64,000 nucleotides of DNA from an uncultured Clostridia bacterium (GTDB taxonomy: Bacteria; Bacillota; Clostridia; UBA1381), in NCBI GenBank assembly GCA_944393255.1, contig CALXZP010000042.1:1-64000 (forward strand). The letters run 5' to 3'. The position numbers were made by a program, and so were the translations under genes. Position 1 is the first letter of the stretch, and each line of letters opens with the position of its first letter. This document shows, one piece after another, positions 39,143-53,007 of the stretch. The notes beneath the pieces were generated by a model that saw only the letters and a program-made list of their open reading frames with translations, was not told the origin of the DNA and ran no database searches.

Positions 39143-39171
39143 TTGACAAATCAGGGTTACAGGTGTAAACT
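39143..39171 (+). promoter_or_regulatory. sigma-A promoter of the BlaI/BlaR1-type pair
   Basis: -35 TTGACA (39143-39148), -10 TAAACT (39166-39171), spacer 17 bp. The -10 box overlaps the first BlaI-type operator. Confidence 0.75.
39156..39170. promoter_or_regulatory. BlaI/MecI-type operator 1
   Basis: GTTACAGGTGTAAAC, a near-perfect palindrome of the TACA-N2-TGTA type bound by BlaI/MecI repressors. It covers part of the spacer and -10 box. Confidence 0.75.
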
Positions 39172-39181
39172 ATAGATAAGA

Positions 39182-39196
39182 GTTACAAATGTAAAC
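39182..39196. promoter_or_regulatory. BlaI/MecI-type operator 2
   Basis: GTTACAAATGTAAAC, 26 bp downstream of operator 1 and between the promoter and the ribosome site. Two operators on nearly the same DNA face suggest cooperative autorepression. Confidence 0.75.
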
Positions 39197-39215
39197 TCGG
39201 ATGAGGAGGTTTAGT

Positions 39216-39587
39216 ATGGAAAATGTAAAGAACATTTCCGAATCGGAGTGGAAAGTGCTCGAGGTCTTGTGGGACAAGCCGGGAAGTCTCATAGGCGAAA
39301 TAAGAACGGCCCTTGCCGGAAGCGGCTGGAGCTATTCGACGATAAAGACGCTCGTTTTGAGATTGACTCAAAAGGGAGCGCTTTACACAAAGGAAACGCC
39401 GCAGGGCAAGGAATACTATCCTGCGGTGGACGAGGACAAATCGCGCCGCGACGAAACGAAGCATTTCCTTGACAGGATATATAACGGTTCGGTGCGGATG
39501 CTGTTTTCAAATCTCGTAAAAGACTCGAAATTGTCTGACAAAGAGGCTGAGGAGCTTATGGGGCTTATTGATAAGATGGAGGATTGA
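39216..39587 (+). CDS. BlaI/MecI-family repressor
   Basis: This 123-residue protein is a winged-helix repressor (ISESEWKVLEVLWDKPG... then YSTIKTLVLRLTQKG, residues 5-65) with a C-terminal dimerisation helix. In the classical systems the membrane protease BlaR1/MecR1 triggers cleavage of the repressor. The usual cleavage region near residue 100 reads RMLFSNLV here. The ATG at 39216 follows AGGAGG. Two matching operators lie in its own promoter, so it autoregulates. Confidence 0.88.
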   Translation: MENVKNISESEWKVLEVLWDKPGSLIGEIRTALAGSGWSYSTIKTLVLRLTQKGALYTKETPQGKEYYPAVDEDKSRRDETKHFLDRIYNGSVRMLFSNLVKDSKLSDKEAEELMGLIDKMED

Positions 39588-39646
39588 AGCTTGAAGGCGA
39601 TATGAACATCTGCTTCAAGCGTGTTTTGCGAAAGGAGTTAAAGCCT

Positions 39647-41107
39647 ATGAACAGTACGATATATTCTCTGTTTATCTCAATGGCATTGCGTGTAACGGTA
39701 ATTACGGCGTTTGTAATGCTCATAAAGCTCGTGTTCCGCCAGAAGCTTTCCGCGGCGGCGCACTGCGGCATATGGCTCATACCGGTAGTCCAGGTCATGT
39801 TTTGTATAGGCAATGTGAGCATACCCGCCAAGACCAGTATCTATAATGTGGTCGAGGGGGTAACGGTCCCGGCGGACGTGATAGCCGCGCAGCAGACGGC
39901 GGCGCATACAGATGTGCGCAACATCATTGCGCTGGTCTACTGCATCGGAACGGCTGTGCTCGCGCTTTGGTATCTGACGGTGTTCCTGCTGCACAGGTAC
40001 AGAACATCAAAGCTTGAGACGGTAGATGACGCGGAAACGCTGAGAATACTCAGCGGTCTGAAATCGGTTCTCGGCATAGGCGGCGAAATAAAGCTGCGCC
40101 GCGGCAAATTTGCGCAGACGCTCGGAAATACGGTCATCCTGCCCGGCGGATATTCCTATGACGAGCAGCGGCAGATAATGCTTCACGAGCTTTGCCACTA
40201 TAAGAACAAGGACAATGTCAAGCTTCTTATCGCTGCGGCGGTGATATGCCTTAACTGGTTCAATCCGTTGGTTTGGCTGGCGTTCAGACGGTTCAGGAGC
40301 GATATAGAGATGTATTGCGACGATAACGTTATGAAGCTGACAGACAGCAAAAAGGAATACGCGATGGTTCTTGTAAAGACCGCGGCTGAGCATACTCGGT
40401 TCGTTCCCGGAGCGGCCGGAGTAAGCAACAGCAAGCACGAGGTGGCGCGCAGAGTGAGACGGATAGCGTCGTGGAAGAAAAAGAAGCCGGTATGGCTCGT
40501 TGCGGCGGTGTGCGCATGTGTGACAGTCTCATGCCTGTGTCTGACCGACGCTGTATCAACGGCAGTGGAGAATACCGTTGACGCGGCCGCTGCGCCGGAG
40601 CCTGTGGATGTGGTCCCGGCTATAATAGAGACCGTAACATCGCAGAACACTCCGGAGCCGACGGAAGCGCCGGCGGAGCCGGAGCCGGAATATTCCGAAC
40701 CGCGTACCCGTCAGAGCACGGCGGCTGTGCAGGATAACGATACTGCGCAGGACGACGCTGCCGGCGAACGTGCCGAAAGCGGCGGAACGTATTCATATGC
40801 GCCGGAGACGGACACGGTCTATGAAGCGGAAAACGCTGCGGCGTACGCAGAGCCGGAAGAGCCTGTACAGGAGCCGGAAACCGCCGCGCCTGAGGAGGAT
40901 ATATATTCCTCTCTGGGCGAGCCGGAGAGCGTGAGCGCAAACGGGAACAAGGAGACCTACAGCCTTGACGACGGCAGAACGGCGGTGCTTCACTATGACG
41001 GCGGCGAGCTTGAAACGGGCTACATCATAAACGGCGGCGGACAGGAAAGCGAGCCGGCCGCGGAGGATGCGCCGGAGCCGCGCGAAGGGAGCGTAACAGA
41101 GGAGTAA
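39647..41107 (+). CDS. BlaR1/M56-family membrane metalloprotease sensor
   Basis: This 486-residue protein has several membrane helices (about 1-130 and near 285-305) and a cytoplasmic zinc protease with HELCH (H180, E181, H184) and a downstream glutamate region DIEMYCDDNV. In BlaR1 the extracellular domain binds beta-lactams; here there is no penicillin-binding domain but a long disordered Pro/Glu-rich segment ending in a 28-residue module (40949-41032) shared with the next gene. I start at the ATG at 39647 with AAAGGAG; a TTG at 39584 overlapping the blaI stop is an alternative. Confidence 0.85.
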   Translation: MNSTIYSLFISMALRVTVITAFVMLIKLVFRQKLSAAAHCGIWLIPVVQVMFCIGNVSIPAKTSIYNVVEGVTVPADVIAAQQTAAHTDVRNIIALVYCIGTAVLALWYLTVFLLHRYRTSKLETVDDAETLRILSGLKSVLGIGGEIKLRRGKFAQTLGNTVILPGGYSYDEQRQIMLHELCHYKNKDNVKLLIAAAVICLNWFNPLVWLAFRRFRSDIEMYCDDNVMKLTDSKKEYAMVLVKTAAEHTRFVPGAAGVSNSKHEVARRVRRIASWKKKKPVWLVAAVCACVTVSCLCLTDAVSTAVENTVDAAAAPEPVDVVPAIIETVTSQNTPEPTEAPAEPEPEYSEPRTRQSTAAVQDNDTAQDDAAGERAESGGTYSYAPETDTVYEAENAAAYAEPEEPVQEPETAAPEEDIYSSLGEPESVSANGNKETYSLDDGRTAVLHYDGGELETGYIINGGGQESEPAAEDAPEPREGSVTEE

Positions 41108-41370
41108 AGCAGCTTTTTTGGGAGATAGGGTAAAGGAGATAATATAGGCAGATAAGGCCGGAGCCGTATAAGGGAAGATAAACGGGTAAACAGGCAAAGG
41201 GAGATAAGCAGGTATTTTCTGAAACGGCAGAGGCGGGCGCTCGCCCCGGTAATGAGCTATGAGCATTATTTTGCGGGTGAGCGCTGTTTTTAAACAAAAA
41301 CAGAGTAAAAATATTCAATATTATTGCAATTAACACCATTAGAGGAGATAGAAAGGAAAGGTAATATATT
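41108..41370. other. intergenic region with AGATAA repeats
   Basis: Purine-rich DNA (41120-41215) with at least five GAGATA/AGATAA-like units is followed by a GC-rich hairpin (CGGGCGCTCGCCCCG near 41237-41250) and a CTGTTTTT/AAAAACAG palindrome (about 41284-41303). No BlaI-type operator and no clear promoter for the downstream array is seen. Confidence 0.4.
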
Positions 41371-41613
41371 ATGAAAAAGGCGATGCTTATAGCGGCGATC
41401 ATGATGATGGGAACTACCGCGCTGGCGGCTGACAGGGACGATATGGCGGCGGTAGCGATAGGAAGCAACCGTGCAGCCGTTTATGAAACGGCCGGAACGG
41501 GTGAGACGACCTCGTCGGGGCTTAAGGAGACGTATACGCTTGACGGCGGCGATGAGGCGGTACTGCATTTTGACAGTGATATTCTCGTAAGAGGATTTAT
41601 ATTAAATTATTGA
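41371..41613 (+). CDS. small secreted protein sharing a module with the M56 sensor
   Basis: This 80-residue protein has a signal peptide (1-20, ending ALAA) and a short mature part. Its last 28 residues (KETYTLDGGDEAVLHFD...ILN, 41524-41607) align without gaps with the C-terminal module of the preceding M56 sensor, 16 of 28 identical by eye. I know no named family. It has a GGAAAGG site and lies 31 bp before the first SLH gene. It could be a ligand, decoy or co-receptor for the sensor, but that is an inference. Confidence 0.65.
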   Translation: MKKAMLIAAIMMMGTTALAADRDDMAAVAIGSNRAAVYETAGTGETTSSGLKETYTLDGGDEAVLHFDSDILVRGFILNY

Positions 41614-41644
41614 ATATGGTATGGGAATACAGGAGGTGAAAGGG

Positions 41645-44125
41645 ATGAACAGGATCGTTATGAAAGCGGCTGCGGCGTTTTGCGCGGCGGCTATCCTGCC
41701 GTCGGCATGGGCGGTTCCCGAAACGAAAGCGGCGGAATGGATAAACCTGTCCTCGTGGGCGTATGAGGATGTGAGCAGCTTTGTGAGCAAGGGACTGCTT
41801 CCGGAAAGCCTGAGCGGCGTTTCGGATTATACGCGCCCGATAAAGCGGTGGGAGCTGTGCGAGCTGATATATTCCGTGCTTGACAGCGCCGGTATGTTTG
41901 TGCATGACAGGTTCGGAAAAAGCTTTGACGACTGCGGCGGATATCCGAATATGAACAAGCTCTGCAGCGTGGGCATAATAGACGGCGTTGAGACGGACGA
42001 AGGCGTGTTCTTTTATCCGGAGAACGATATTACGCGCGAGGACGCAGCCAAAATAGCCGGCAATACGATGACCGGTACGGGAGTATGGGAGGATGCCGGG
42101 GATACGGGTGCGGAAGCCCTGAACGGAAGAATAAACGATGTTTCCGAAATAAGCGGATACGCGCTGCCGTCGGTGGCTTCTGCGATCTCAAACGGGTTGA
42201 TGACCGATACCGGCAGCGGCAGCTTTGAGCCGAAGGCGCGGCTGACGGTCGAGCAGGCGGTGATAATTGTTTATAGGATGTATAATAATATCCCAAAGCT
42301 TGTGGACTCGGATAACGAGACGGCGGACGGCGCCGGGGAGCAGACTGTGCGCGAACTCGGAGACGGGCTTGAGGAGACGTACGACGGCGGCGTTTACCGT
42401 ATAAAGAAAGACGGCGAAACGCTCATGCAGCTTGAAGCGGACGTATATTCCAAGCTTCTTTACGGAAAGAACAACGGCGCAGAATACATTTTTGCGGTCA
42501 ATTTCAACGATAAGACCGATGTGTACGACCTCGGCACGAAGGAGCTTTTGTATACCATACCGTATATAGTGTATAGGCTTGACAATGAAAACGGACTGGC
42601 GTACGTGTACTCGTCGCGGTTCATGCCGGCATACAGCGGTGTTTACGGCATGGACGGCGCGGAATTGGCAAAGCCGGAATACAGCGAAAGGGAGCTTGAG
42701 CTGATGGCGGAAAACGGCTTCAGGGAGCCGGAAGAGGAATACCGTGCGGCGGACGGCTGGATATACTATTCAAACTGGAACGACAGCGGGCATCTGTATA
42801 AGGTTGATACAAACGGCGAAAATAAAAAGCTGCTCGTGAGCGGGCTTGACTGCTGCGATACGGAATACTTTAAGGGAATGCTGTATTTCAAGGCGAAGGA
42901 AAACGGCGCGCTTTACTGTACCGACAGCGAGGGCGGAAAGCTTTTCACATTGTCCGAGTCAGAAAACGCCGAGATGGTGTGGCCGAGGGCGTCCTTATTC
43001 AACTCTGAGGCGTATGAGGACGGCGATATCATCACCGATATAAACGGAAATAGATTTGTAATAGGTCGGGACAGCATTTATTACGACAGGCGCGGACAGG
43101 TGTTTGACGGCTGGCTCATGTACGGTGAACCGGCAGATTATACGAGAGAATTTACCGAGCCTGACGGCGGAACAGCGTCGGTATCAAGCAGCGCCTGCAT
43201 ACTTTACAGGTTCAGAACGGCAAACGGCGGTATAGAGCGCGAAAAAATAGCCGACTATCCCGTATACAAGCTATCCGTGAGCGCAGACGGGGATGCGGTA
43301 TGGTTTATGAACGCACAGGAGCTTGCCGAGACAGGGGAATCGCAGATATACGTGTATGACGGAAAGGATATCACCGATGCGGCGGACGGCATAAAAGCGA
43401 TAGATATCGGGTTTTGTTATGACAAGGACAAAGACGGGGCGGACATGAGCAAGCTTTGCTTTATCACGATGGATGAGATAGGAAAAGGCACATATCATGC
43501 CATGGATATAAAAACGGGAGAAATAACGCAGGAGCAGCTTGAACAGCCGCGTTATGAGCAGAGCGACGGGCATGTTTACAGCGGCATAAGCGCTGACGAT
43601 ATGAAGGCGTACGGCACGGAGGACAGAACGCTGGTCATTGAATATAACGGAACGAAAACGGAGCTTGGAAAAGCTGATCCGATCTATAGGGAAGGCAGCA
43701 CGGTCTATTATTCAAAGGATATTAACATGCTGTACGGATACGGCTCGTCAAACCCGTTAAGGCGGGTTGTGAATTCGGAGCGGGATATATATTGGTACGA
43801 TTATGTCACGGGAGAGAAAGGATACGCGGCCGGTGACTTTGACTGCCGGTGGGATGAGTTCGATGGTGCGTACATATATACTACTCCGCTTATGCAGTAC
43901 AGGATGCTGAGCGGCGGCGGATCGGTTTCCGTATATCCCAATAAGGGAATAAACAAGTACGGAGCGGTCGGGCTGCTGTCAACGCTCAGTGACGTGATAT
44001 GGCAGAACGACCACCTCTATAAGATAGACAAGGACGGCGTTTTTACCGACGTGACCTGCAGCGACGCCGGATATTGGGTATATGTTCCGAACGGGAGCGA
44101 CGAGGCCGCTATGAGCCAATGGTAG
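41645..44125 (+). CDS. SLH-domain surface protein, array copy 1
   Basis: This 826-residue exported protein has a signal peptide and three S-layer homology domains (about 25-225: AEWINLSSWAYEDV, ENDITREDAAKIAG and KARLTVEQAVIIVYR). A long Tyr/Asp-rich region of propeller-like repeats follows (RAADGWIYYSNWND, HLYKVDTNGENKKLL), resembling DUF5050, and a C-terminal IYVPNGS-like end. SLH domains attach proteins to pyruvylated wall polymer. The rest may bind a ligand. AGGAGGTGAAAGGG precedes the ATG. It is the first of four paralogs in tandem. Confidence 0.85.
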   Translation: MNRIVMKAAAAFCAAAILPSAWAVPETKAAEWINLSSWAYEDVSSFVSKGLLPESLSGVSDYTRPIKRWELCELIYSVLDSAGMFVHDRFGKSFDDCGGYPNMNKLCSVGIIDGVETDEGVFFYPENDITREDAAKIAGNTMTGTGVWEDAGDTGAEALNGRINDVSEISGYALPSVASAISNGLMTDTGSGSFEPKARLTVEQAVIIVYRMYNNIPKLVDSDNETADGAGEQTVRELGDGLEETYDGGVYRIKKDGETLMQLEADVYSKLLYGKNNGAEYIFAVNFNDKTDVYDLGTKELLYTIPYIVYRLDNENGLAYVYSSRFMPAYSGVYGMDGAELAKPEYSERELELMAENGFREPEEEYRAADGWIYYSNWNDSGHLYKVDTNGENKKLLVSGLDCCDTEYFKGMLYFKAKENGALYCTDSEGGKLFTLSESENAEMVWPRASLFNSEAYEDGDIITDINGNRFVIGRDSIYYDRRGQVFDGWLMYGEPADYTREFTEPDGGTASVSSSACILYRFRTANGGIEREKIADYPVYKLSVSADGDAVWFMNAQELAETGESQIYVYDGKDITDAADGIKAIDIGFCYDKDKDGADMSKLCFITMDEIGKGTYHAMDIKTGEITQEQLEQPRYEQSDGHVYSGISADDMKAYGTEDRTLVIEYNGTKTELGKADPIYREGSTVYYSKDINMLYGYGSSNPLRRVVNSERDIYWYDYVTGEKGYAAGDFDCRWDEFDGAYIYTTPLMQYRMLSGGGSVSVYPNKGINKYGAVGLLSTLSDVIWQNDHLYKIDKDGVFTDVTCSDAGYWVYVPNGSDEAAMSQW
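41731..41880 (+). repeat. conserved 5' block of SLH array, copy 1
   Basis: Encodes AEWINLSSWAYE and the rest of SLH1. Nearly the same DNA occurs at 44221-44370 (about ten differences in 150 bases by eye), including silent sites. Confidence 0.75.
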
Positions 44126-44137
44126 GAGGTAAGGCAG

Positions 44138-46594
44138 ATGAACAGCATAAAAATAAATGCGGCGGCGCTGATATGCGCTCTGTCGCTGATATCCGCATCC
44201 GTGCCGATGGGCGCGGGCGCGGCGGAATGGATAAACCTGTCCTCGTGGGCGTATGAGGAGGTAAGCGGCTTTGTGAGCGACGGGCTGCTTCCGGACAGCC
44301 TGAGCGGCGTTTCGGATTATACGCGCCCGATAAAGCGGTGGGAGCTGGGCGAGCTGATATATTCCGTCCTGTATCACTGCGGACAATTTTCTGAGGACGT
44401 ATATCAGGGCAGAGAATTCAGCGACTGCGAAGCATATCCCAATATTACGAAGCTCTACCGCTACGGGATAGCCGAGGGCGACGGCAGCGGGAATTTCAGA
44501 CCGGAGGAAAATATAACGCGCGAGGACGCCGCGGTGCTTATAGGACGGGCGATGGATCATTGCGGAGCGTATTATTCGACTGCGGATATAGATGGCGAAA
44601 ACGATGAAAACGCTGGCTTGAGCGGTATATCCGACAGTAAACAGATAAGCGGCTATGCAAGATCCGACGTGCTCAGTCTTATGAAGTTCGGCATCATGAA
44701 CGGAACAGGCGGCGGCTTCGAGCCGAAGAGCGGACTGTCTGTTGAACAGGCAGTGATAGCGGTCTACAGAGTTTATAAGTGGCTGCCGAGGCTGATACTC
44801 CCGGATAACGAAGGTATAAGCGGAGAGAATGAGCAGACGCTGCAGGAATACCCGAACGGGGCAGTTGAAGCGTTTTACGGGAACAGCTATCTTTTGAAAA
44901 AAGACGGGAAGCAGCTGATGACGTTTGAGACCGATGTATATTCAAAAATACTCAGCTGTGACTATGGCGGAGAAACACTGGCGTTTGCGGTCAACTTCAA
45001 TGATAAAACGGATGTGTTCAGGGCGGAAACAGGCGAGTTTATGTATACTATACCGTATATCGTCTATAAGCTCAGACCGGAGGAAGGACATATATACGTA
45101 TACTCGTCACGGTTCATGCCGGCATACAGCGGTATTTACGGCTTTGACGGCAGCGAGATCATAAAGCCGGAATACAGCGAAACGGAGCTTGAGGCGATAG
45201 CGGCGAACGGTTATGATATCCCGCAGGAGCAGTACCGTGCGGCGGACGGCTGGGTATACTATTCAAACTGGAATGATAACGGACATTTGTATAAGGTGGA
45301 TTCAAACGGTGAAAACGGCAAGCTGCTTGTAGACGGCCTGGACTGCAAGAATACGTATTACTTTAACGGTATGCTGTATTTCAATGCAAAAGAAGACGGC
45401 TGTCTCTACTGTATAGACGAGGATGGCAATGCTCTGCAAAAAATATCCGAGACTCCGGCTCAACAAATATGGGTACAAAAGGTCGGATTTGACGATCTCG
45501 CCGAGGAAAAAGAAGTAAATCTTATTGAATATAGCGCATCCAGAACGCTTTTGTACGGCACGGAGCGATTTACGGGCAAGAACGGGCGGATCCTGTACGG
45601 CGAAGATGCTTCTTTTGAAATGGAATATGTGGATGAGAGCACCGGTGAACGAACGTCCGTGCCGTTGTCGGCTTACATACTGTATGAATTCAGTTTCGGC
45701 AGCGGAGAACGCAAAAAGGTGGCGGATTTTCCCGTAAATAGAGTGATATGGTCATCCTCTGGAGACGACAGAGTGCTCTTTACGAACTATGAGGAAGCAA
45801 AAAAAACGGGAGCTTCGCCGATATATATGTATGACGGCTCCGAGCTTAAATGCATTACCGGCAGTCTGAAAGCGGTCACATACGGATTTATGCAGGAGGA
45901 AGGAAGCGGATATGGCGGGGATCGGCTGATTGGCAGCAAGGTCGGTTTTGTAACGCCGGAGGATATGGACGGAGACACATATCACATAGCAGATCTTGAT
46001 ACGGGTGAGATCACTGTAGAGAAGCTCAGGGAACCCGCCGATGACGAATACAGCGGCGGTGAAGATAAGATGGGCTATGATGAGCTGAGCGGCGACGGGT
46101 ATGAGATATACCGCAGCGGCATGAATCTGTATGTAGAAAACGGCTCGGAAACGAAGAGCCTCGGTGAAGGAGCCGCATTATTCCGTGACGGGGATATATT
46201 GTATTATGCGAATTACGCCGACCTTTTGGGAATCGACCTGTACGGTTATGCTCTGATGGCTTACAATATGAGAACAGGCGGACAAAGCATTGTAAGCGAC
46301 AGATATGTATATTGTTTAGGTATAAGATCCGATGTGATGAGCTTTCAGGAAAAGACCGGACATATCAAGAAAATAGACGGCGGAGAAACGCTTACCGTTT
46401 ATCCGAACAAGGGCCTTAAAAGATACGGCGAAGTCGATAGGATAGAGCACCGGATGAGGCAGATATGGCAGCCCAGGTATGTGTATAAAATAGATAAAGA
46501 CGGTAACTGTACACAGCTGACCGACTGCCAGTCCGAGTTTTGGCTATATGTTCCGAACGGAGCCGATAAAGCGAGCTTTTGTCAGTACGGCTGA
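44138..46594 (+). CDS. SLH-domain surface protein, array copy 2
   Basis: This 818-residue paralog of copy 1 has the same order: signal peptide, three SLH domains (ITREDAAVLIG, LSVEQAVIAVYR) and the propeller-like region with RAADGWVYYSNWND. The first 80 codons combine a signal peptide like that of copy 3 with an SLH1 second half like that of copy 1. AGGAGG precedes the ATG, 12 bp after copy 1. The remaining parts are clearly diverged from the other copies. Confidence 0.85.
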   Translation: MNSIKINAAALICALSLISASVPMGAGAAEWINLSSWAYEEVSGFVSDGLLPDSLSGVSDYTRPIKRWELGELIYSVLYHCGQFSEDVYQGREFSDCEAYPNITKLYRYGIAEGDGSGNFRPEENITREDAAVLIGRAMDHCGAYYSTADIDGENDENAGLSGISDSKQISGYARSDVLSLMKFGIMNGTGGGFEPKSGLSVEQAVIAVYRVYKWLPRLILPDNEGISGENEQTLQEYPNGAVEAFYGNSYLLKKDGKQLMTFETDVYSKILSCDYGGETLAFAVNFNDKTDVFRAETGEFMYTIPYIVYKLRPEEGHIYVYSSRFMPAYSGIYGFDGSEIIKPEYSETELEAIAANGYDIPQEQYRAADGWVYYSNWNDNGHLYKVDSNGENGKLLVDGLDCKNTYYFNGMLYFNAKEDGCLYCIDEDGNALQKISETPAQQIWVQKVGFDDLAEEKEVNLIEYSASRTLLYGTERFTGKNGRILYGEDASFEMEYVDESTGERTSVPLSAYILYEFSFGSGERKKVADFPVNRVIWSSSGDDRVLFTNYEEAKKTGASPIYMYDGSELKCITGSLKAVTYGFMQEEGSGYGGDRLIGSKVGFVTPEDMDGDTYHIADLDTGEITVEKLREPADDEYSGGEDKMGYDELSGDGYEIYRSGMNLYVENGSETKSLGEGAALFRDGDILYYANYADLLGIDLYGYALMAYNMRTGGQSIVSDRYVYCLGIRSDVMSFQEKTGHIKKIDGGETLTVYPNKGLKRYGEVDRIEHRMRQIWQPRYVYKIDKDGNCTQLTDCQSEFWLYVPNGADKASFCQYG
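44163..44370 (+). repeat. conserved 5' block of SLH array, copy 2
   Basis: 44163-44288 matches 46671-46796 of copy 3 with about four differences in 126 bases, whereas 44221-44370 matches copy 1: a mosaic. Confidence 0.75.
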
Positions 46595-46645
46595 TTTTAG
46601 GCGCGCTGTATCGGTGAGGAAAGATGAGAAACGGAGGAGATGGGC

Positions 46646-49126
46646 TTGAGGAAATTAAAGATAAGAACAGCGGCGCTGATATGCGCCCTGTCGCTGATAT
46701 CCGCATCCGTGCCGATGGGCGCGGGCGCGGCGGAATGGATAAACCTGTCCTCGTGGGCATACGAGGAGGTAAGCGGCTTTGTGAGCGACGGACTGCTCGC
46801 CGGGCGGCTGAAAGGGGAAGCGGACTATACGCGCGCGATCACGCGCGGTGAGTTTGCGGAGCTTATATATTCCGTGCTGTCCGCTTCCGGACGCGGCGGT
46901 GTGAGCGAAAGCGGCGGGAGCGCTTCCGGCTTTGCCGATTGCAGCGGTTATCCGGACATAAATAAGCTTGACCGCGCGATATTTGAGGGGCTGGAGGACG
47001 CAGGTGTGAACCTGTATCCGGAGCGCCGTGTGACGCGCGAAGAAGCTGCGCTCATAATTTACAACGCGCTGGGAGCTATAGGTGTTTACGGCTACAGCAG
47101 CATCCCCGACTATGAGAGGCTCGGCGCAAATATCAGCGACGCCGGAGAGATAAGCGGCTACGCGGTAAACGCGGTCGAAAAGCTGACGAGCAGCGGCATA
47201 ATGACGGATACGGGCGGCGGTAAATTCGAGCCAAAGTCCGAAATAACGATAGAGCAGGGGATCGCGGTGCTTTACAGGATATACAGGTCGATCCCGAAGC
47301 TCATATATGCAGACGCGGAGGGCATAGAAGGCGGAAGCGGGGAAATACAGTCATACGGCGGCGGTCTTGCGGAGATATACAGCGGCGGAAGGTATACCGT
47401 GACCGATAACGGCGCAGAGCTGCTGAGCTTTGAGGCCGATGTGTATTCAAAGCTGCTATGCTGCGAGTACGGCGGAAGAAGGCTGGCATTTGCCGTTAAT
47501 TTCAACGACAAGACGGACGTATACGACCTTGACAGCGGAAAAGTGATATATTCTATACCGTATATAGTGTACCGTCTCGACGCGGAAAACGGACTTGTAT
47601 ATGTGTACTCATCGCGGTTCATGCCGGCTTGCAGCGGTCTGTATTCGATGGACGGCGCGGAGCTGACGCCGCCGGAATACAGCGAATCAGAGCTTTCGGA
47701 GCTTGCGGCAAACGGCTTTGATATACCGGAGGAAGAACGCCGTAACGCCGACGGGTGGGTGTATTACACAGACCGCGGCGACGGGCGTATATATAAGACC
47801 GATTCAAACGGTGAAAACGAAAGCCTGCTCACAGCTGACGGCGGCTGCACTAATATAGCTTATGCCGACGGTATGGTCTTTTACAATTCAAGCGGAGGCT
47901 CGCTTATGTGTACGGACGGGAGCGGCGGCGGAGCCGTTCTGTCCGAGCAGCCTGCGGAGCTGCTGACGGCTTACGATGTGGTATTCGATCCGCACAAGCC
48001 TCCGCAGTACGCGGCTGAAAAGGTATATTCCAAAAGCGACGACGGCGGGAACAGGATAACGGACGGATATTTTCTTGACAAAAACGAGATATCTTCCTGC
48101 CTTAGAGCTGACGGGAGCATCATCTTCGGCGAAGCGGCTGAGCTGAAAAGAACGATAGTAGATCTTGAGGAAAAGAGCACGGGCGAAAGAACTCTGTATG
48201 CCTGCCGGCTGTATAAGGTCAATATTTCCGAAAACGGCGCGGAAGCGGAGCGTGTCGCCGATTTTCCGGCGATAGGTATATGCGCGTCTCCTGACGGCTC
48301 GGGCATATACTTTATGAACGCGGAAGAGCTTGTGAAGAACGGCGATTCTCCGATCTATGCGTATGACGGAAAGACCGTATCGGCGCTGCCGCAGGGGCTG
48401 CGCGCGGAGTGCTTCGGGTTTCTGAGAGGGAACGGCGATGAGGACGGCATGATAGGGTATTTGACAAAGGACGAGATAGGCGGGGGTACATACCATGTGT
48501 TCGATCCGTCGGATGGAAGCGTCACGGTCAAAGACATGCCGGAGTATGAAAAGAGTGAAAGCGGCGATTCCTTACCGCTTTCAGACGACGAGAACGGCAG
48601 ACTTTCGGCAGACTGGGACGGGAGCCGCCTGAAGATAGAATACGGCGGCAGTACGAAGGAGCTGGAAAACGTTTTATATATCGATACCTTTGGCGGACGC
48701 GTATATTACAGCCCCGGTACGGCGCGAAGCTTTTTCGATATGTCGGTGCTTTCGACGGTCGGGATGGGCAGAGTGTGGCGGATAAGCTGCTATGATTACA
48801 GGACGGGCGGGACTGCGGAGGTGAGCGATGATTTTTCGGAAAGCTTCATCACGTCACGCCTGCTCGGAGATAAGCAGATATACAAGACGGCAGCCGGTCA
48901 ATACAGGCTTTTGACGGGTACTGAAAGCGTTTCCGTATATCCGAACAAGGGTCTGCACCGGTTCGGCGAGCTGTCCGCCGTAGCGCGCCTTGACGGGACT
49001 TCATGGCAGAACGGACGTCTTTATAAAATAGATAAAGACGGAAACTTTACACAGCTGACCGAGCGCGGCGCAGAAGAGTGGATCTATGTGCCGAACGGCG
49101 GCAGCGAAGCAAAATTTTCAGGATAA
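46646..49126 (+). CDS. SLH-domain surface protein, array copy 3
   Basis: This 826-residue paralog has a signal peptide, three SLH domains (ITRGEFAELIYS, VTREEAALIIYN, ITIEQGIAVLYR) and the propeller-like region, here with RNADGWVYYTDRGD replacing the usual NWND. I start at the TTG at 46646, eight nt after GGAGG; the ATG at 46640 is only 2 nt from it. It lies 51 bp after copy 2. Confidence 0.84.
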   Translation: MRKLKIRTAALICALSLISASVPMGAGAAEWINLSSWAYEEVSGFVSDGLLAGRLKGEADYTRAITRGEFAELIYSVLSASGRGGVSESGGSASGFADCSGYPDINKLDRAIFEGLEDAGVNLYPERRVTREEAALIIYNALGAIGVYGYSSIPDYERLGANISDAGEISGYAVNAVEKLTSSGIMTDTGGGKFEPKSEITIEQGIAVLYRIYRSIPKLIYADAEGIEGGSGEIQSYGGGLAEIYSGGRYTVTDNGAELLSFEADVYSKLLCCEYGGRRLAFAVNFNDKTDVYDLDSGKVIYSIPYIVYRLDAENGLVYVYSSRFMPACSGLYSMDGAELTPPEYSESELSELAANGFDIPEEERRNADGWVYYTDRGDGRIYKTDSNGENESLLTADGGCTNIAYADGMVFYNSSGGSLMCTDGSGGGAVLSEQPAELLTAYDVVFDPHKPPQYAAEKVYSKSDDGGNRITDGYFLDKNEISSCLRADGSIIFGEAAELKRTIVDLEEKSTGERTLYACRLYKVNISENGAEAERVADFPAIGICASPDGSGIYFMNAEELVKNGDSPIYAYDGKTVSALPQGLRAECFGFLRGNGDEDGMIGYLTKDEIGGGTYHVFDPSDGSVTVKDMPEYEKSESGDSLPLSDDENGRLSADWDGSRLKIEYGGSTKELENVLYIDTFGGRVYYSPGTARSFFDMSVLSTVGMGRVWRISCYDYRTGGTAEVSDDFSESFITSRLLGDKQIYKTAAGQYRLLTGTESVSVYPNKGLHRFGELSAVARLDGTSWQNGRLYKIDKDGNFTQLTERGAEEWIYVPNGGSEAKFSG
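46671..46860 (+). repeat. conserved 5' block of SLH array, copy 3
   Basis: The signal-peptide part matches copy 2; the SLH1 part (46711-46860) matches 50601-50750 of copy 4 with about six differences in 150 bases. Confidence 0.75.
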
Positions 49127-49150
49127 ATATTATTTGGGAGGTAAATGAAA

Positions 49151-50509
49151 ATGAATAAGAAGATAAGCTCTGTACTAACAGCGGCGGCTCTTGCGGCCGC
49201 AATAATGCCCGCAGCGGCAAATGCGGAAACAGGTGTAAAAACAGGCGACTATATAAGGCTCGGTACATATAACGGGACTCCGCTCATATGGCGGTGCGCC
49301 GGGGAAGATGAAAACGGCGCGCTGATGTTTGCCGGCTCTGTCATATGCTACAAGGCTTTCGACGCCGCTTCGGAGGGGAACTCTTTCGGCACGAACCTCT
49401 GGCAGCGGTCCGCAATACGCGCATGGCTGAATTCCCCGGATGAAAATGTGGTATATACGGCAGCTCTGCCGTCGGAGGAAAATGTGTGGCTCGGTTATAA
49501 CAGCTATGATAAGGAACCGGGCTTCCTCACAAATTTCAGCGAAGCCGAGAAAAAGGCTGTCAAGCCCGTCCGGCTCAAAACGCCGCTGAACGAGGAGTAC
49601 GCGGCTGAGGCAGACGGTACGTATACCGGAACGGAGCTGGATACGGAGTTCACCGCTCAGAGTGCGGATATGGCGTATCAGTATACAACGGACAGCATGT
49701 TTCTGCTGGATACGGAGCAGCTGTCTATGGTCATGACTGCTCTGCCGGGGTATCAAGTTCCGGAAAATGAGGCTGTTTTCGGCGGAGTATACGCCGGGCT
49801 GGACAGCAGTATGAAGAACGAATACTGGCTGCGATGCCCAAACATAAATAAGGGCGACAAGGACAGGGTGTATTCGGTACAGGTATCGGAGGATGAAGCG
49901 TTCTGCTCGAAGCATACCATAGCATACATGAGCGCAGGCATACGCCCGGGCTTCTATCTGAACGATAACGTATCTTTCGTAAGCGGCAGCGGAACGGCAG
50001 ACGACCCGTTCATAGTCACTTCGGACACGGTTGATAACCCATTGCCGAACGAGCAGGAAAAGATAATAAGGGTGACGAACGACGGCGAAAGAATACAGGT
50101 ATTTCTGGATAAATCCGAGCTGGAGTTCACCGATGCAAAGCCATTCATCGATGAAAACGACCGTACCATGATACCCATAAGAGCGGTCGCGGAGGGTCTG
50201 AACTGCGGCGTTGAGTACGACGAGCAGACGAGGACGGTAACTGTAACGGATAATGATAATGTGCTGACGCTCGTTATCGGCGGCAGGAACTTAGTCCGTA
50301 ACGGCGAGACTATAGAGATGGATACGGCGGCTGTCATATACGGCAGCAGAACGTATATACCGCTGCGGTTCGCGGCGGAAGCCCTGGGATACGATGTGAA
50401 TTACGGAGCCAGGGTGGTATCGGTGACGATCGATGAAAACGGCAATGCGGTATGGACAACGGAGGACGGCATAAGCGGCAGCTTTGAGGAACTCCAGGCA
50501 ATGCACTGA
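49151..50509 (+). CDS. secreted DUF6273-like protein with copper-amine-oxidase-N domain
   Basis: This 452-residue exported protein has a signal peptide (1-24), a DUF6273-like domain (about 28-275; IRLGTYNGTPLIWRC, WLRCPN, SAGIRPGFYL) of unknown function, and a C-terminal PF07833 domain (about 320-430; MIPIRAVAEGLNC and YIPLRFAAEALGY), not an oxidase. It stands between SLH copies 3 and 4 on the same strand and is exported and surface-directed like them. I start at the second ATG (49151), nine nt after GGGAGG. Confidence 0.75.
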   Translation: MNKKISSVLTAAALAAAIMPAAANAETGVKTGDYIRLGTYNGTPLIWRCAGEDENGALMFAGSVICYKAFDAASEGNSFGTNLWQRSAIRAWLNSPDENVVYTAALPSEENVWLGYNSYDKEPGFLTNFSEAEKKAVKPVRLKTPLNEEYAAEADGTYTGTELDTEFTAQSADMAYQYTTDSMFLLDTEQLSMVMTALPGYQVPENEAVFGGVYAGLDSSMKNEYWLRCPNINKGDKDRVYSVQVSEDEAFCSKHTIAYMSAGIRPGFYLNDNVSFVSGSGTADDPFIVTSDTVDNPLPNEQEKIIRVTNDGERIQVFLDKSELEFTDAKPFIDENDRTMIPIRAVAEGLNCGVEYDEQTRTVTVTDNDNVLTLVIGGRNLVRNGETIEMDTAAVIYGSRTYIPLRFAAEALGYDVNYGARVVSVTIDENGNAVWTTEDGISGSFEELQAMH

Positions 50510-50535
50510 CAAGAAGTATACAAGGAGAAACAGAA

Positions 50536-53007
50536 ATGAACAGTATGGTAAAAACGCTTGCAGCGGCGCTGTGCGCCATGTCGGTATTGCCTGCGTCCGC
50601 GCCGATAGGCGCGGGCGCGGCGGAATGGATAAACCTGTCCTCGTGGGCATACGAGGAGGTAAGCGGCTTTGTGAGCGACGGACTGCTCACCGGGCGGCTG
50701 AAAGGTGAAGCGGACTATACGCGTGCGATCACGCGCGGCGAATTTGCGGAATTGCTGTACTCTGTCATATCGGAGACCGGCATGATCCGTGATGAAAAAA
50801 TGAATTACGTGTTTGACGACTGCGAGGAGTATCCGGCTGTGGATATGCTGTACGGCTATATCCGTTCATGGATAAGAGACGACAGCCTGATAGGCGCGGA
50901 AGGAAGAAATTTTTATCCCGATCGGCCGTTAAAGCGCAGCGACGCGGCGATCATGCTGTACACCGTTGCTGCCTATACCGATATATTGACCAATATATAT
51001 CTTAAGGACGTGCAGATAAGTGTTTCCGACCTGGACGATCTGAGCGAAGATGCCCGGAAAATGATAGGCAGAGTTATGGAGGTGGGCTTTATGTCAGGCT
51101 CGGGCGGCGGGTGTTTCGATCCCGGCGGCGAGCTTACGGTGGAGCAGGGCGTAGCGGTGGCGTACAGGATGTATAAGGCCGTGCCGCGTCTGATATATTC
51201 CGATGATGAGGGACATGAAAACGGCGATGTGCTGCAGACCTACGGCGGCGGTCTCTCCGAGCTTTACAGAGACGGCGGATATGTCATATCGGACGGGAGC
51301 GCGGAGCTTATGTCTTTTGAAACGGATGTATATTCAAAAATACTGTGCTGTGAATACGGAGGAAAAAGATTTGCATTCGCGGTGAATTTCAATGACAAGA
51401 CAGATGTTTACGACCTGGACAGCGGAAGCGTATTGTATTCCATCCCCTATATAGTATACCGTCTCGATGCGGAAAACGGCATGGCATATGTATATTCATC
51501 AAGGTTCATGCCGGCTTACAGTGGACTGTACTCATTCGGAGGCGAGGAGCTTGCCGCGCCCGAATACAGCGAGACCGAGCTTTTGGAAATAGCCGAAAAC
51601 GGCTTTGCTGCGCCGCAGGAGGAATACCGCGGAGCGGACGGCTGGATATACTATGCAAACTGGAACGATAACGGACATCTTTATAAGATAGACTCGAACG
51701 GCGAGAACAAAAAGCTGCTCGTAGACGGCTGCGATTGTATAAATACGCAGTATAAGGATGGACTCATATATTATAATTCAAATGAGGATAATTCTCTGAG
51801 ATGTGTTGATGAAAACGGCGGCAGCCAATACGTTATATCAGATAAGCGCGCGCATTTTATGCACAAGGATGTAATGAGATTTGATACGGAGGATGTTCCT
51901 GAGGATATCAAAGGCTATAAGGATATATACGGGAACAATTATTCGGTTGAGTATTTCAGCTATTGCTACGGTGCGCCGGATGCGGCGTTCTTCAACGGCT
52001 ATGAGATTTACGGTGAGAATGCATATATTGAAAGAACGATCGTGTATCCGGACGGCGGCAGCTTTAAGGCGATGTGTTATGCGGAGTATGTATACAAATT
52101 CAAGGTCACCGGCAGCGGTGTGGAAAAAGAGAAGATAGCGGAGTTTCCGATATCGAATATCAGCTTTAACAAAAGCGGCGACAAGATGTATTTCATGAAC
52201 GGAAAGGAGATCGCGGAAAACGGGGACTCGCCGATATACGTGTATGACGGGGAGACGGTTTCGGAGGTCTCGCCGGGACTGCGCGCCGAATGTTACGGAT
52301 TTTTGTTCAACGGCGAAGAACAGAGCGATGAGATAGGCTATATACCAAAAGAGGAGCTATGGACCGGCACATACCGTGTGCTTGACCTTGCCGGCGGAAG
52401 CATAAGGCAGGAGCAGCTCTTGGAATACAGTGAGGAAGAGTTCGATCATTACCGGGTATATGATACCGGGCAGGCTGACGATAAGCTTTCGGTGATACGG
52501 TCCGGCAGCGAAGTTCTCAGAGTGGAATATGACGGGAAAGCGACGGAGCTTGACCGCGCTCAGTTCCAGGATATCGTGGGAGACAATATCATCTATTTGA
52601 AGATCGGCGGCGAAGCACGGCCGGTGCATATGAGTTCAAATATAGGCTCGTCTGAGACAAAAGAGCTTTGGGCGTATAATTACAAGACAGGCGCGGATAT
52701 GAGGCTGTGCGACGATTTTGCCTCGCGTTTGACATATGCGGCTACCGAAGGAAATCTTATCTACAGGACGCCGCAGAATCAGTATAAGATAGTTTTGGGT
52801 ACTGAAAGCAGAACGGTATATCCCAATAAGGGACTGCACCGGTACGGTAAAACGGCTTATATCACGAGGCTGTACAATGTTACATGGCAGAAGCCCTATC
52901 TTTACAAGGTGGATACCGAGGGAAACCTTACGCAGCTGACAGACTGCCATACCGAAAAATGGATATATGTGCCCAACGGCAGCAGTGAAGCCGTATTCAG
53001 AGGCTGA
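50536..53007 (+). CDS. SLH-domain surface protein, array copy 4
   Basis: This 823-residue paralog has a signal peptide, three SLH domains (ITRGEFAELLYS, LKRSDAAIMLY, LTVEQGVAVAYR) and the propeller-like region (GADGWIYYANWND, HLYKIDSNGENKKLL). Its SLH1 is nearly that of copy 3, but its signal peptide is distinct. AAGGAG precedes the ATG, 26 bp after the DUF6273-like gene. A weak hairpin at 53076-53099 may end the array. Confidence 0.85.
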   Translation: MNSMVKTLAAALCAMSVLPASAPIGAGAAEWINLSSWAYEEVSGFVSDGLLTGRLKGEADYTRAITRGEFAELLYSVISETGMIRDEKMNYVFDDCEEYPAVDMLYGYIRSWIRDDSLIGAEGRNFYPDRPLKRSDAAIMLYTVAAYTDILTNIYLKDVQISVSDLDDLSEDARKMIGRVMEVGFMSGSGGGCFDPGGELTVEQGVAVAYRMYKAVPRLIYSDDEGHENGDVLQTYGGGLSELYRDGGYVISDGSAELMSFETDVYSKILCCEYGGKRFAFAVNFNDKTDVYDLDSGSVLYSIPYIVYRLDAENGMAYVYSSRFMPAYSGLYSFGGEELAAPEYSETELLEIAENGFAAPQEEYRGADGWIYYANWNDNGHLYKIDSNGENKKLLVDGCDCINTQYKDGLIYYNSNEDNSLRCVDENGGSQYVISDKRAHFMHKDVMRFDTEDVPEDIKGYKDIYGNNYSVEYFSYCYGAPDAAFFNGYEIYGENAYIERTIVYPDGGSFKAMCYAEYVYKFKVTGSGVEKEKIAEFPISNISFNKSGDKMYFMNGKEIAENGDSPIYVYDGETVSEVSPGLRAECYGFLFNGEEQSDEIGYIPKEELWTGTYRVLDLAGGSIRQEQLLEYSEEEFDHYRVYDTGQADDKLSVIRSGSEVLRVEYDGKATELDRAQFQDIVGDNIIYLKIGGEARPVHMSSNIGSSETKELWAYNYKTGADMRLCDDFASRLTYAATEGNLIYRTPQNQYKIVLGTESRTVYPNKGLHRYGKTAYITRLYNVTWQKPYLYKVDTEGNLTQLTDCHTEKWIYVPNGSSEAVFRG
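50601..50750 (+). repeat. conserved 5' block of SLH array, copy 4
   Basis: Nearly identical to 46711-46860 of copy 3 (about six differences by eye), with different flanks. Confidence 0.75.

What the first reader, a model, noticed from the sequence alone, without database searches (positions are those of the whole stretch)
39143..53007. Sensor-repressor pair next to an SLH/propeller surface array: candidate undescribed surface system
Seen: a BlaI-type repressor with two own operators, a BlaR1-type M56 metalloprotease that lacks a penicillin-binding domain, a small secreted protein, four SLH-anchored propeller-like paralogs and one DUF6273-like protein, all on one strand over 14 kb. Known: BlaR1-type proteases sense an extracellular signal and relieve BlaI repression. 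Inferred: the sensor monitors the cell surface or something bound by the array. No BlaI box is seen in front of the array, so control of the array by the repressor is not shown.
Basis: partly seen in the sequence, partly recalled or inferred. Interest (0 to 1): 0.65.

Follow-up and report, generated by a model that had tools for sequence, protein, structure and literature searches.

The report
Sensor–repressor operon coupled to surface propellers
In one family of uncultured gut Clostridia, a protease-type sensor and its repressor are always found beside genes for wall-anchored propeller proteins; the sensor carries a small external binding domain, most loci also encode a free secreted version of that domain, and the set looks like a self-contained, so far undescribed system for controlling a surface protein array.

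Summary
Window 39143-53007 holds a BlaI repressor with two operators, an M56 (BlaR1-type) protease without a penicillin-binding domain, a small secreted protein, four SLH/double-propeller paralogs and one DUF6273 protein. AlphaFold and Foldseek place it in the BamE/BLIP fold.

In 70 genomes of the family, this domain and the propeller family occur in exactly the same 20. Of 26 sensor loci, all 24 with enough contig carry the propeller gene beside the sensor. The tail is the most conserved part of the sensor (96-98% identical; core 74-88%, linker 43-52%). Tailed sensors are not one clade (AU p 4.5e-84); the tree needs five gains or losses, so the tail goes with the array rather than with a protease lineage. 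In one genome the array lies upstream of blaI and has its own copy of the double-operator promoter, so the array is very probably in the BlaI regulon.

Most likely the sensor reads the state of the array, or a partner of it, through the tail, and the free twin competes for the same site. The ligand is not shown. New variant of BlaI/BlaR1-type regulation.

The parts
39143..39198 (+). BlaI-controlled promoter: TTGACA (39143), operator 1 (39157-39168), operator 2 (39183-39194)
   Evidence: The same layout, TTGACAAA with O1 starting 14 nt after the first T and O2 at 38-40 nt, stands before blaI in 23 of 24 readable loci and before the array in G027:C33.
39201..39587 (+). BlaI/MecI-family repressor
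   Evidence: PF03965, 97.3 bits.
39647..41107 (+). M56 (BlaR1-type) membrane metalloprotease sensor: protease core, last membrane helix at residues ~281-299, then a ~113-residue Ala/Glu/Pro/Thr-rich linker
   Evidence: PF05569, 123.5 bits; hydropathy and HELCH motif; linker.
40898..41032 (+). C-terminal extracytoplasmic BamE/BLIP-like domain (DOM) of the sensor
   Evidence: 48% identical to the small protein; 96-98% identical among four orthologs while the core is 74-88%; dN = 0 against G004.
41229..41291 (+). Intergenic hairpin between sensor and small gene (GTTTTT follows)
   Evidence: MFE -30.8 kcal/mol, z -3.1; hairpins at the same place in L008-L011 and L013, but no T run in L009/L010, so a terminator role is not consistent.
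41371..41613 (+). Free secreted DOM protein: signal peptide plus one BamE/BLIP-like domain
   Evidence: Model pLDDT 79.5; Foldseek best hits BamE (5wam) and BLIP-like protein (3gmx), probability 1.0; free copies found in 18 loci.
41645..44125 (+). SLH/double-propeller surface protein 1
   Evidence: SLH and DUF5050 above cut-off; 46% identical to SLH2.
44138..46594 (+). SLH/double-propeller surface protein 2
   Evidence: SLH and DUF5050 above cut-off; structure model.
46640..49126 (+). SLH/double-propeller surface protein 3
   Evidence: SLH above cut-off; DUF5050 21.6 bits, below cut-off; 44% identical to SLH2.
49145..50509 (+). Secreted DUF6273 + Cu_amine_oxidN1 protein, an accessory member that varies between loci
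   Evidence: not seen in most relatives; G001 has an LRR_5 + Cu_amine_oxidN1 protein at the like place.
50536..53007 (+). SLH/double-propeller surface protein 4
   Evidence: DUF5050 above cut-off, SLH 14.5 bits below cut-off; 43% identical to SLH2.

Best explanation
The locus is a self-contained surface-array regulon. BlaI represses a promoter with two operators that drives blaI, the sensor and, by read-through, the free DOM protein and the SLH/propeller array. The M56 protein spans the membrane; its protease faces the cytoplasm and its BLIP/BamE-like domain hangs outside on a flexible linker. A change in what that domain binds, most likely the propeller proteins or a wall component they engage, activates the protease, which inactivates BlaI and turns the operon on. 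The free secreted domain competes with the tail for that partner, or saturates it, and so sets the feedback. Shown by sequence: the parts, the operators, the linkage of tail and array, a separate BlaI-type promoter on the array in one genome, constraint on the tail, recurrence of the tail on unrelated sensors, the predicted fold. Inferred: read-through in the window, BlaI cleavage, the partner of the domain, the role of the free copy.
For: Same 20 of 70 family genomes carry DOM and the propeller family. 24 of 24 sensor loci with enough contig have the array beside them, in many genomic contexts. G027:C33: array and blaI each have a TTGACAAA + double-operator promoter. Type B loci: array 0-60 nt after the sensor gene. 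Tail 96-98% identical while core is 74-88% and linker 43-52%; dN 0 at dS about 1.2. Tailed sensors not one clade: five changes forced, AU p 4.5e-84, and none of the 39 tailless M56 rows has a propeller gene beside it. Fold: BamE/BLIP; this superfamily is thought to act by binding a partner domain (PMC2954215). BlaR1/BlaI precedent (PMC7593790).
Against: No operator directly before the array in the window, and a strong hairpin lies in the 263-nt gap before it, so read-through is not shown. No binding partner is known. The free DOM gene was not found in about 8 of 26 loci (some cut by contig ends), so it is probably not essential. No fusion of DOM with a propeller protein was seen. Only four phylogenetically independent pairs were available (4 of 4 agree, p 0.125). 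G071's promoter does not match clearly.
Confidence: 0.6

Rival explanations
1. The BLIP-like tail monitors penicillin-binding proteins or other wall enzymes (cell-wall stress), and the array is a wall-stress output. The free DOM protein modulates the same enzymes.
For: BLIP binds class A beta-lactamases and is thought to bind penicillin-binding proteins (PMC2954215); CopD, with BLIP-superfamily PepSY domains, controls PBP1a/PBP2b dynamics (PMC10653890). M56 sensors classically report beta-lactams.
Against: The tail tracks the propeller family exactly, which a general wall-stress sensor need not do. CopD's extracellular domain showed no interaction with the PBP transpeptidase domains tested. 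No beta-lactamase or PBP gene was recognised beside the arrays, though neighbours were not all scanned.
Confidence: 0.2
2. Homotypic signalling: the free DOM protein is itself the ligand of the tail (domain pairing or strand exchange), so the cell or its neighbours measure how much of the operon's secreted product is outside.
For: Free and tethered domains share 48% identity in the window and recur together; in G001 and G006 the tail has lost the N-terminal helix part and keeps only the strand part.
Against: About 8 of 26 loci have tail and array without a recognised free copy. The free copy diverges faster (69-80% identical) than the tail (96-98%).
Confidence: 0.15
3. The repressor and sensor regulate only themselves; the array has its own promoter after the hairpin and the neighbourhood is just clustering of surface genes.
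For: In the window operators occur only before blaI and a hairpin with GTTTTT lies before the array.
Against: Operators before the array in G027:C33, 0-60 nt gaps in type B loci, no plus-strand promoter-like site at 41108-41370, no T run after the hairpin in L009/L010, repeated pairing with several sensor lineages.
Confidence: 0.12

Closest known systems
BlaI-BlaR1 / MecI-MecR1 beta-lactam induction systems
   Same: PF03965 repressor plus PF05569 membrane protease side by side, two dyad operators on a TTGACA promoter.
   Different: No penicillin-binding sensor domain; tail is a BamE/BLIP-like domain on a long linker; output is an SLH/propeller array, not a beta-lactamase or PBP2a. Scores far below the NCBIfam cut-offs for BlaR1 (93.9 against 400) and BlaI (77 against 180).
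BLIP-like superfamily (BLIP, SmpA_OmlA/BamE, PepSY, DUF2874, DUF3192)
   Same: Predicted fold matches BamE and BLIP; secreted or outside the membrane.
   Different: Below every Pfam cut-off; no report found that links it to M56 sensors; occurs both tethered and free in one operon.
SLH-anchored surface proteins with DUF5050 propellers
   Same: Signal peptide, SLH repeats, propeller region.
   Different: This subfamily is found only beside tailed M56 sensors; no paper held mentions SLH together with DUF5050.
CopD (Streptococcus pneumoniae)
   Same: Membrane protein with extracellular BLIP-superfamily domains acting at the cell wall (PMC10653890).
   Different: No protease, no repressor, PepSY rather than BamE-like, no array.

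Membership tests
BlaI/MecI repressors | PF03965 winged-helix domain | tested here: met
   97.3 bits against cut-off 22.6.
BlaI/MecI repressors | TACA-N2-TGTA type dyad operators at its own promoter | tested here: met
   Exact dyads at 39157 and 39183; layout conserved in 23 of 24 readable loci. Binding itself not tested.
BlaR1/MecR1 beta-lactam sensors | M56 peptidase domain with HExxH | tested here: met
   PF05569 123.5 bits; HELCH.
BlaR1/MecR1 beta-lactam sensors | C-terminal penicillin-binding (class D beta-lactamase-like) sensor domain | tested here: not met
   No such Pfam match; tail is DOM; 93.9 bits against NCBIfam cut-off 400.
BlaR1/MecR1 beta-lactam sensors | Induction by beta-lactams | not testable with these tools
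   Needs an assay.
BLIP-like superfamily | Helix plus antiparallel sheet fold | tested here: met
   Foldseek: BamE 5wam E 4.6e-3, BLIP-like protein 3gmx, probability 1.0, TM about 0.6. No hit reached E 0.001.
BLIP-like superfamily | Membership of a Pfam family (BamE, BLIP, PepSY) above cut-off | tested here: not met
   Best BamE E-value 0.019; the window protein scores 13.0 bits against cut-off 23.2.
BLIP-like superfamily | Inhibits or binds a partner protein | not testable with these tools
   No complex prediction or assay available.
SLH-anchored surface proteins | Signal peptide and SLH repeats | tested here: met
   N-terminal hydrophobic stretch in all four; SLH above cut-off in three of four, the fourth by paralogy.
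SLH-anchored surface proteins | Binding to wall polymer (pyruvylated secondary polymer) | not tested
   Wall-polymer genes were not looked for.

The most novel reading that the evidence does not exclude
A homeostatic surface-surveillance circuit: the sensor's BLIP-like tail and the free secreted twin compete for one site on the propeller array, so the protease reports unassembled or missing array. Unrelated M56 sensors acquired this tail several times (five changes on the tree), making the tail-array contact the unit of evolution.
Probability: 0.3. Interest if true: 0.8.

Novelty: new variant of a known kind. Interest (0 to 1): 0.62.

Why it matters
BlaR1-type proteases are known almost only as beta-lactam sensors, while most family members have no known signal. 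Here the signal domain, its free twin and the likely output sit in one operon that recurs with unrelated sensors. That makes the question of what non-beta-lactam M56 sensors detect directly testable, and suggests how some gut Clostridia control a protein coat.

Tried and rejected
Beta-lactam sensing: no penicillin-binding domain. A general rule that each M56 tail mirrors its downstream gene: looked at in the five other M56 loci of this genome and not seen. Further BlaI sites in the window: only the two exact ones; the TTGACA + operator pattern is unique in the genome. Own promoter of the array: no plus-strand promoter-like site at 41108-41370. Known RNA element: none in Rfam. Sequence relatives of DOM in the PDB: none. 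Fusion of DOM with a propeller: none, all DOM frames are small proteins or M56. DOM outside the family: none in the other 25 genomes of the order, and in a draw of 391 genomes of the class only members of this family match. Literature on M56 with S-layers: nothing relevant. A first operator regex found nothing because its spacing was wrong; replaced.
Full report
OBSERVATION. Pfam gives Penicillinase_R for 39201-39587, Peptidase_M56 for the sensor, SLH and DUF5050 for the long paralogs, and DUF6273 plus Cu_amine_oxidN1 for 49145-50509. SLH4's SLH match and SLH3's DUF5050 match are below cut-off, but both proteins align over their length with the others at 43-46% identity. The likely sensor start is the ATG at 39647, that of the first array protein 41645. 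A model of SLH2 (pLDDT 77) has a long all-beta part whose best solved relatives are tandem propellers such as LRP6. Two exact TTACANNTGTAA dyads lie between 39157 and 39194 and nowhere else in the window; TTGACA with such a dyad at this distance occurs once in the genome.

After the last membrane helix the sensor has a linker of about 113 residues rich in Ala, Glu, Pro and Thr, and then a domain of about 45 residues (40898-41032). The same domain makes up nearly all of the mature small secreted protein: 21 of 44 residues identical, E 2e-11. I call it DOM. In Pfam it reaches only sub-threshold similarity to BamE, in 5 of 13 members. The AlphaFold model of the small protein (pLDDT 79.5) finds BamE and beta-lactamase-inhibitor-type proteins as its best solved relatives (Foldseek probability 1.0, E 4.6e-3 and up, TM about 0.6). 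So it most likely has the BLIP-like fold, whose members are thought to act by binding a partner domain (PMC2954215).

DISTRIBUTION. Searches of 70 genomes of the family found DOM in 20. The propeller family, counted where the match passes beyond the SLH repeats (all at E 3.3e-39 or better; SLH-only matches start at 5.9e-33), is in exactly the same 20. The other 25 genomes of the order have no DOM, and in an even draw of 391 genomes of the class all five matches belong to this family. There are 26 sensor loci with DOM. In 24 the propeller gene lies beside the sensor; in the other two (G064:C160, G064:C18) the contig ends just after the sensor, and unpaired array fragments exist in the same genome. 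The order varies: sensor, free DOM, propellers (window and most relatives); sensor, propeller, free DOM (G000:C5, G004:C59, G021:C5, G073:C110); array first (G027:C33). The flanking genes differ widely (after an EF-G-like gene, after a lysA-like gene, next to trp- or atp-like genes), so the module, not the chromosome region, is conserved. A free DOM gene is found in 18 loci. None of the five DOM-less M56 loci of this genome has a propeller gene of this family beside it.

CONTROL OF THE ARRAY. In front of blaI, 23 of 24 readable loci share TTGACAAA with a first dyad 14 nt from the start of the -35 box and a second at 38-40 nt; G071 is the exception. In G027:C33 the small gene and the propeller gene lie upstream of blaI, and the array has its own copy of this double-operator promoter (TTGACAAATCGAGGTTACTGTAGTAAACTATAATTAGAGGTTACGAAAGTAACCTC) besides the one before blaI. 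This natural rearrangement marks the array as a target. In type B loci the array follows the sensor by 0-60 nt. In the window itself the gap to the small gene is 263 nt, with no promoter-like site on the plus strand but a strong hairpin. Hairpins sit at the same place in five relatives, but L009 and L010 lack a T run, so I read it as a possible attenuator or mRNA-processing element; read-through in the window is inferred, not shown.

CONSTRAINT AND EVOLUTION. Between the window and three orthologs the M56 core is 74-88% identical, the linker 43-52%, DOM 96-98%. Against G004, dN of DOM is 0 at dS about 1.2, while the linker has dN/dS 0.29. The tail is therefore the most constrained part of the sensor. 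A tree of 61 M56 proteins (22 with DOM, 39 without) needs five changes of the DOM label, all forced by well-supported branches, and one clade of tailed sensors is rejected (AU p 4.5e-84). Type A, type B and three single sensors (G027:C92, G071:C49, G064:C18) are different M56 lineages. Parsimony cannot tell five gains from fewer gains plus losses, and the count of independent pairs is only four (all agree; p 0.125). M56 distances correlate with propeller distances (r 0.70) and with free-DOM distances (r 0.73), as expected of modules that travel together; kinship contributes to this.

MECHANISM. By the BlaR1 precedent (PMC7593790), an outside event on the tail should activate the inside protease, which inactivates BlaI. 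Because the tail goes with the array and not with a protease lineage, the most economical reading is that the tail touches the array or something the array holds, and that the free twin competes for the same site. The rivals are wall-enzyme sensing, tail-to-twin pairing, and self-regulation only; they are listed with what would refute each.

LIMITS. Nearly all genomes are metagenome assemblies with broken contigs, and repeats in the array break them further. The models are of single chains. Nothing here tests binding, cleavage or expression. Statements about BlaR1 topology are from the cited review and hydropathy.

Noticed in passing
L139:2770-4653, L140:2770-4644, L141:2156-4051 (G004:C121, G076:C27, G027:C86): M56 sensors whose extracytoplasmic part is a set of SLH repeats, each next to a BlaI gene: a protease sensor that appears to be anchored directly to the wall, another surface-linked variant in the same family.
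   Followed up: partly
L026:5849-7160 (G000:C62) and the clade with n_L110, L114, L116, L117, L119, L121, L137, L138: A well-supported clade of M56 proteins in which most members have a stop inside or at the end of the M56 match, with TAG, TGA or TAA in different genomes; in G000:C62 a second ORF follows about 26 nt later. This looks like a conserved split gene rather than random decay.
   Followed up: no
window 41108-41130; L008, L009, L010, L018, L048, L059 just after the sensor stop: A conserved GCTTTTTTGGGAGA-like stretch directly after the sensor stop codon in both type A and type B loci, followed in type A by repeated GGTAAATAGG-like purine-rich sequence. Function unknown.
   Followed up: no
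L022:6117-7815 (G000:C42 near 102 kb): Another BlaI + M56 pair whose M56 frame ends early; the next ORF begins with the rest of the M56 region and continues into what looks by eye like a LytR-CpsA-Psr-type domain. Not checked by HMM.
   Followed up: no
L023:4341-6143 (G000:C40) and L024:4266-7340 (G000:C14): Two more M56 loci of this genome near SLH proteins: one sensor has a Cu_amine_oxidN1 tail and lies after an SLH gene, the other is followed by an SLH + Cu_amine_oxidN1 gene. M56 sensors may be used for surface proteins more widely here.
   Followed up: partly
L011:7761-7895 and L013:11195-11329: In these two sensors the DOM tail lacks its N-terminal helix part and keeps only the strand part, hinting that the strands carry the conserved function.
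   Followed up: no
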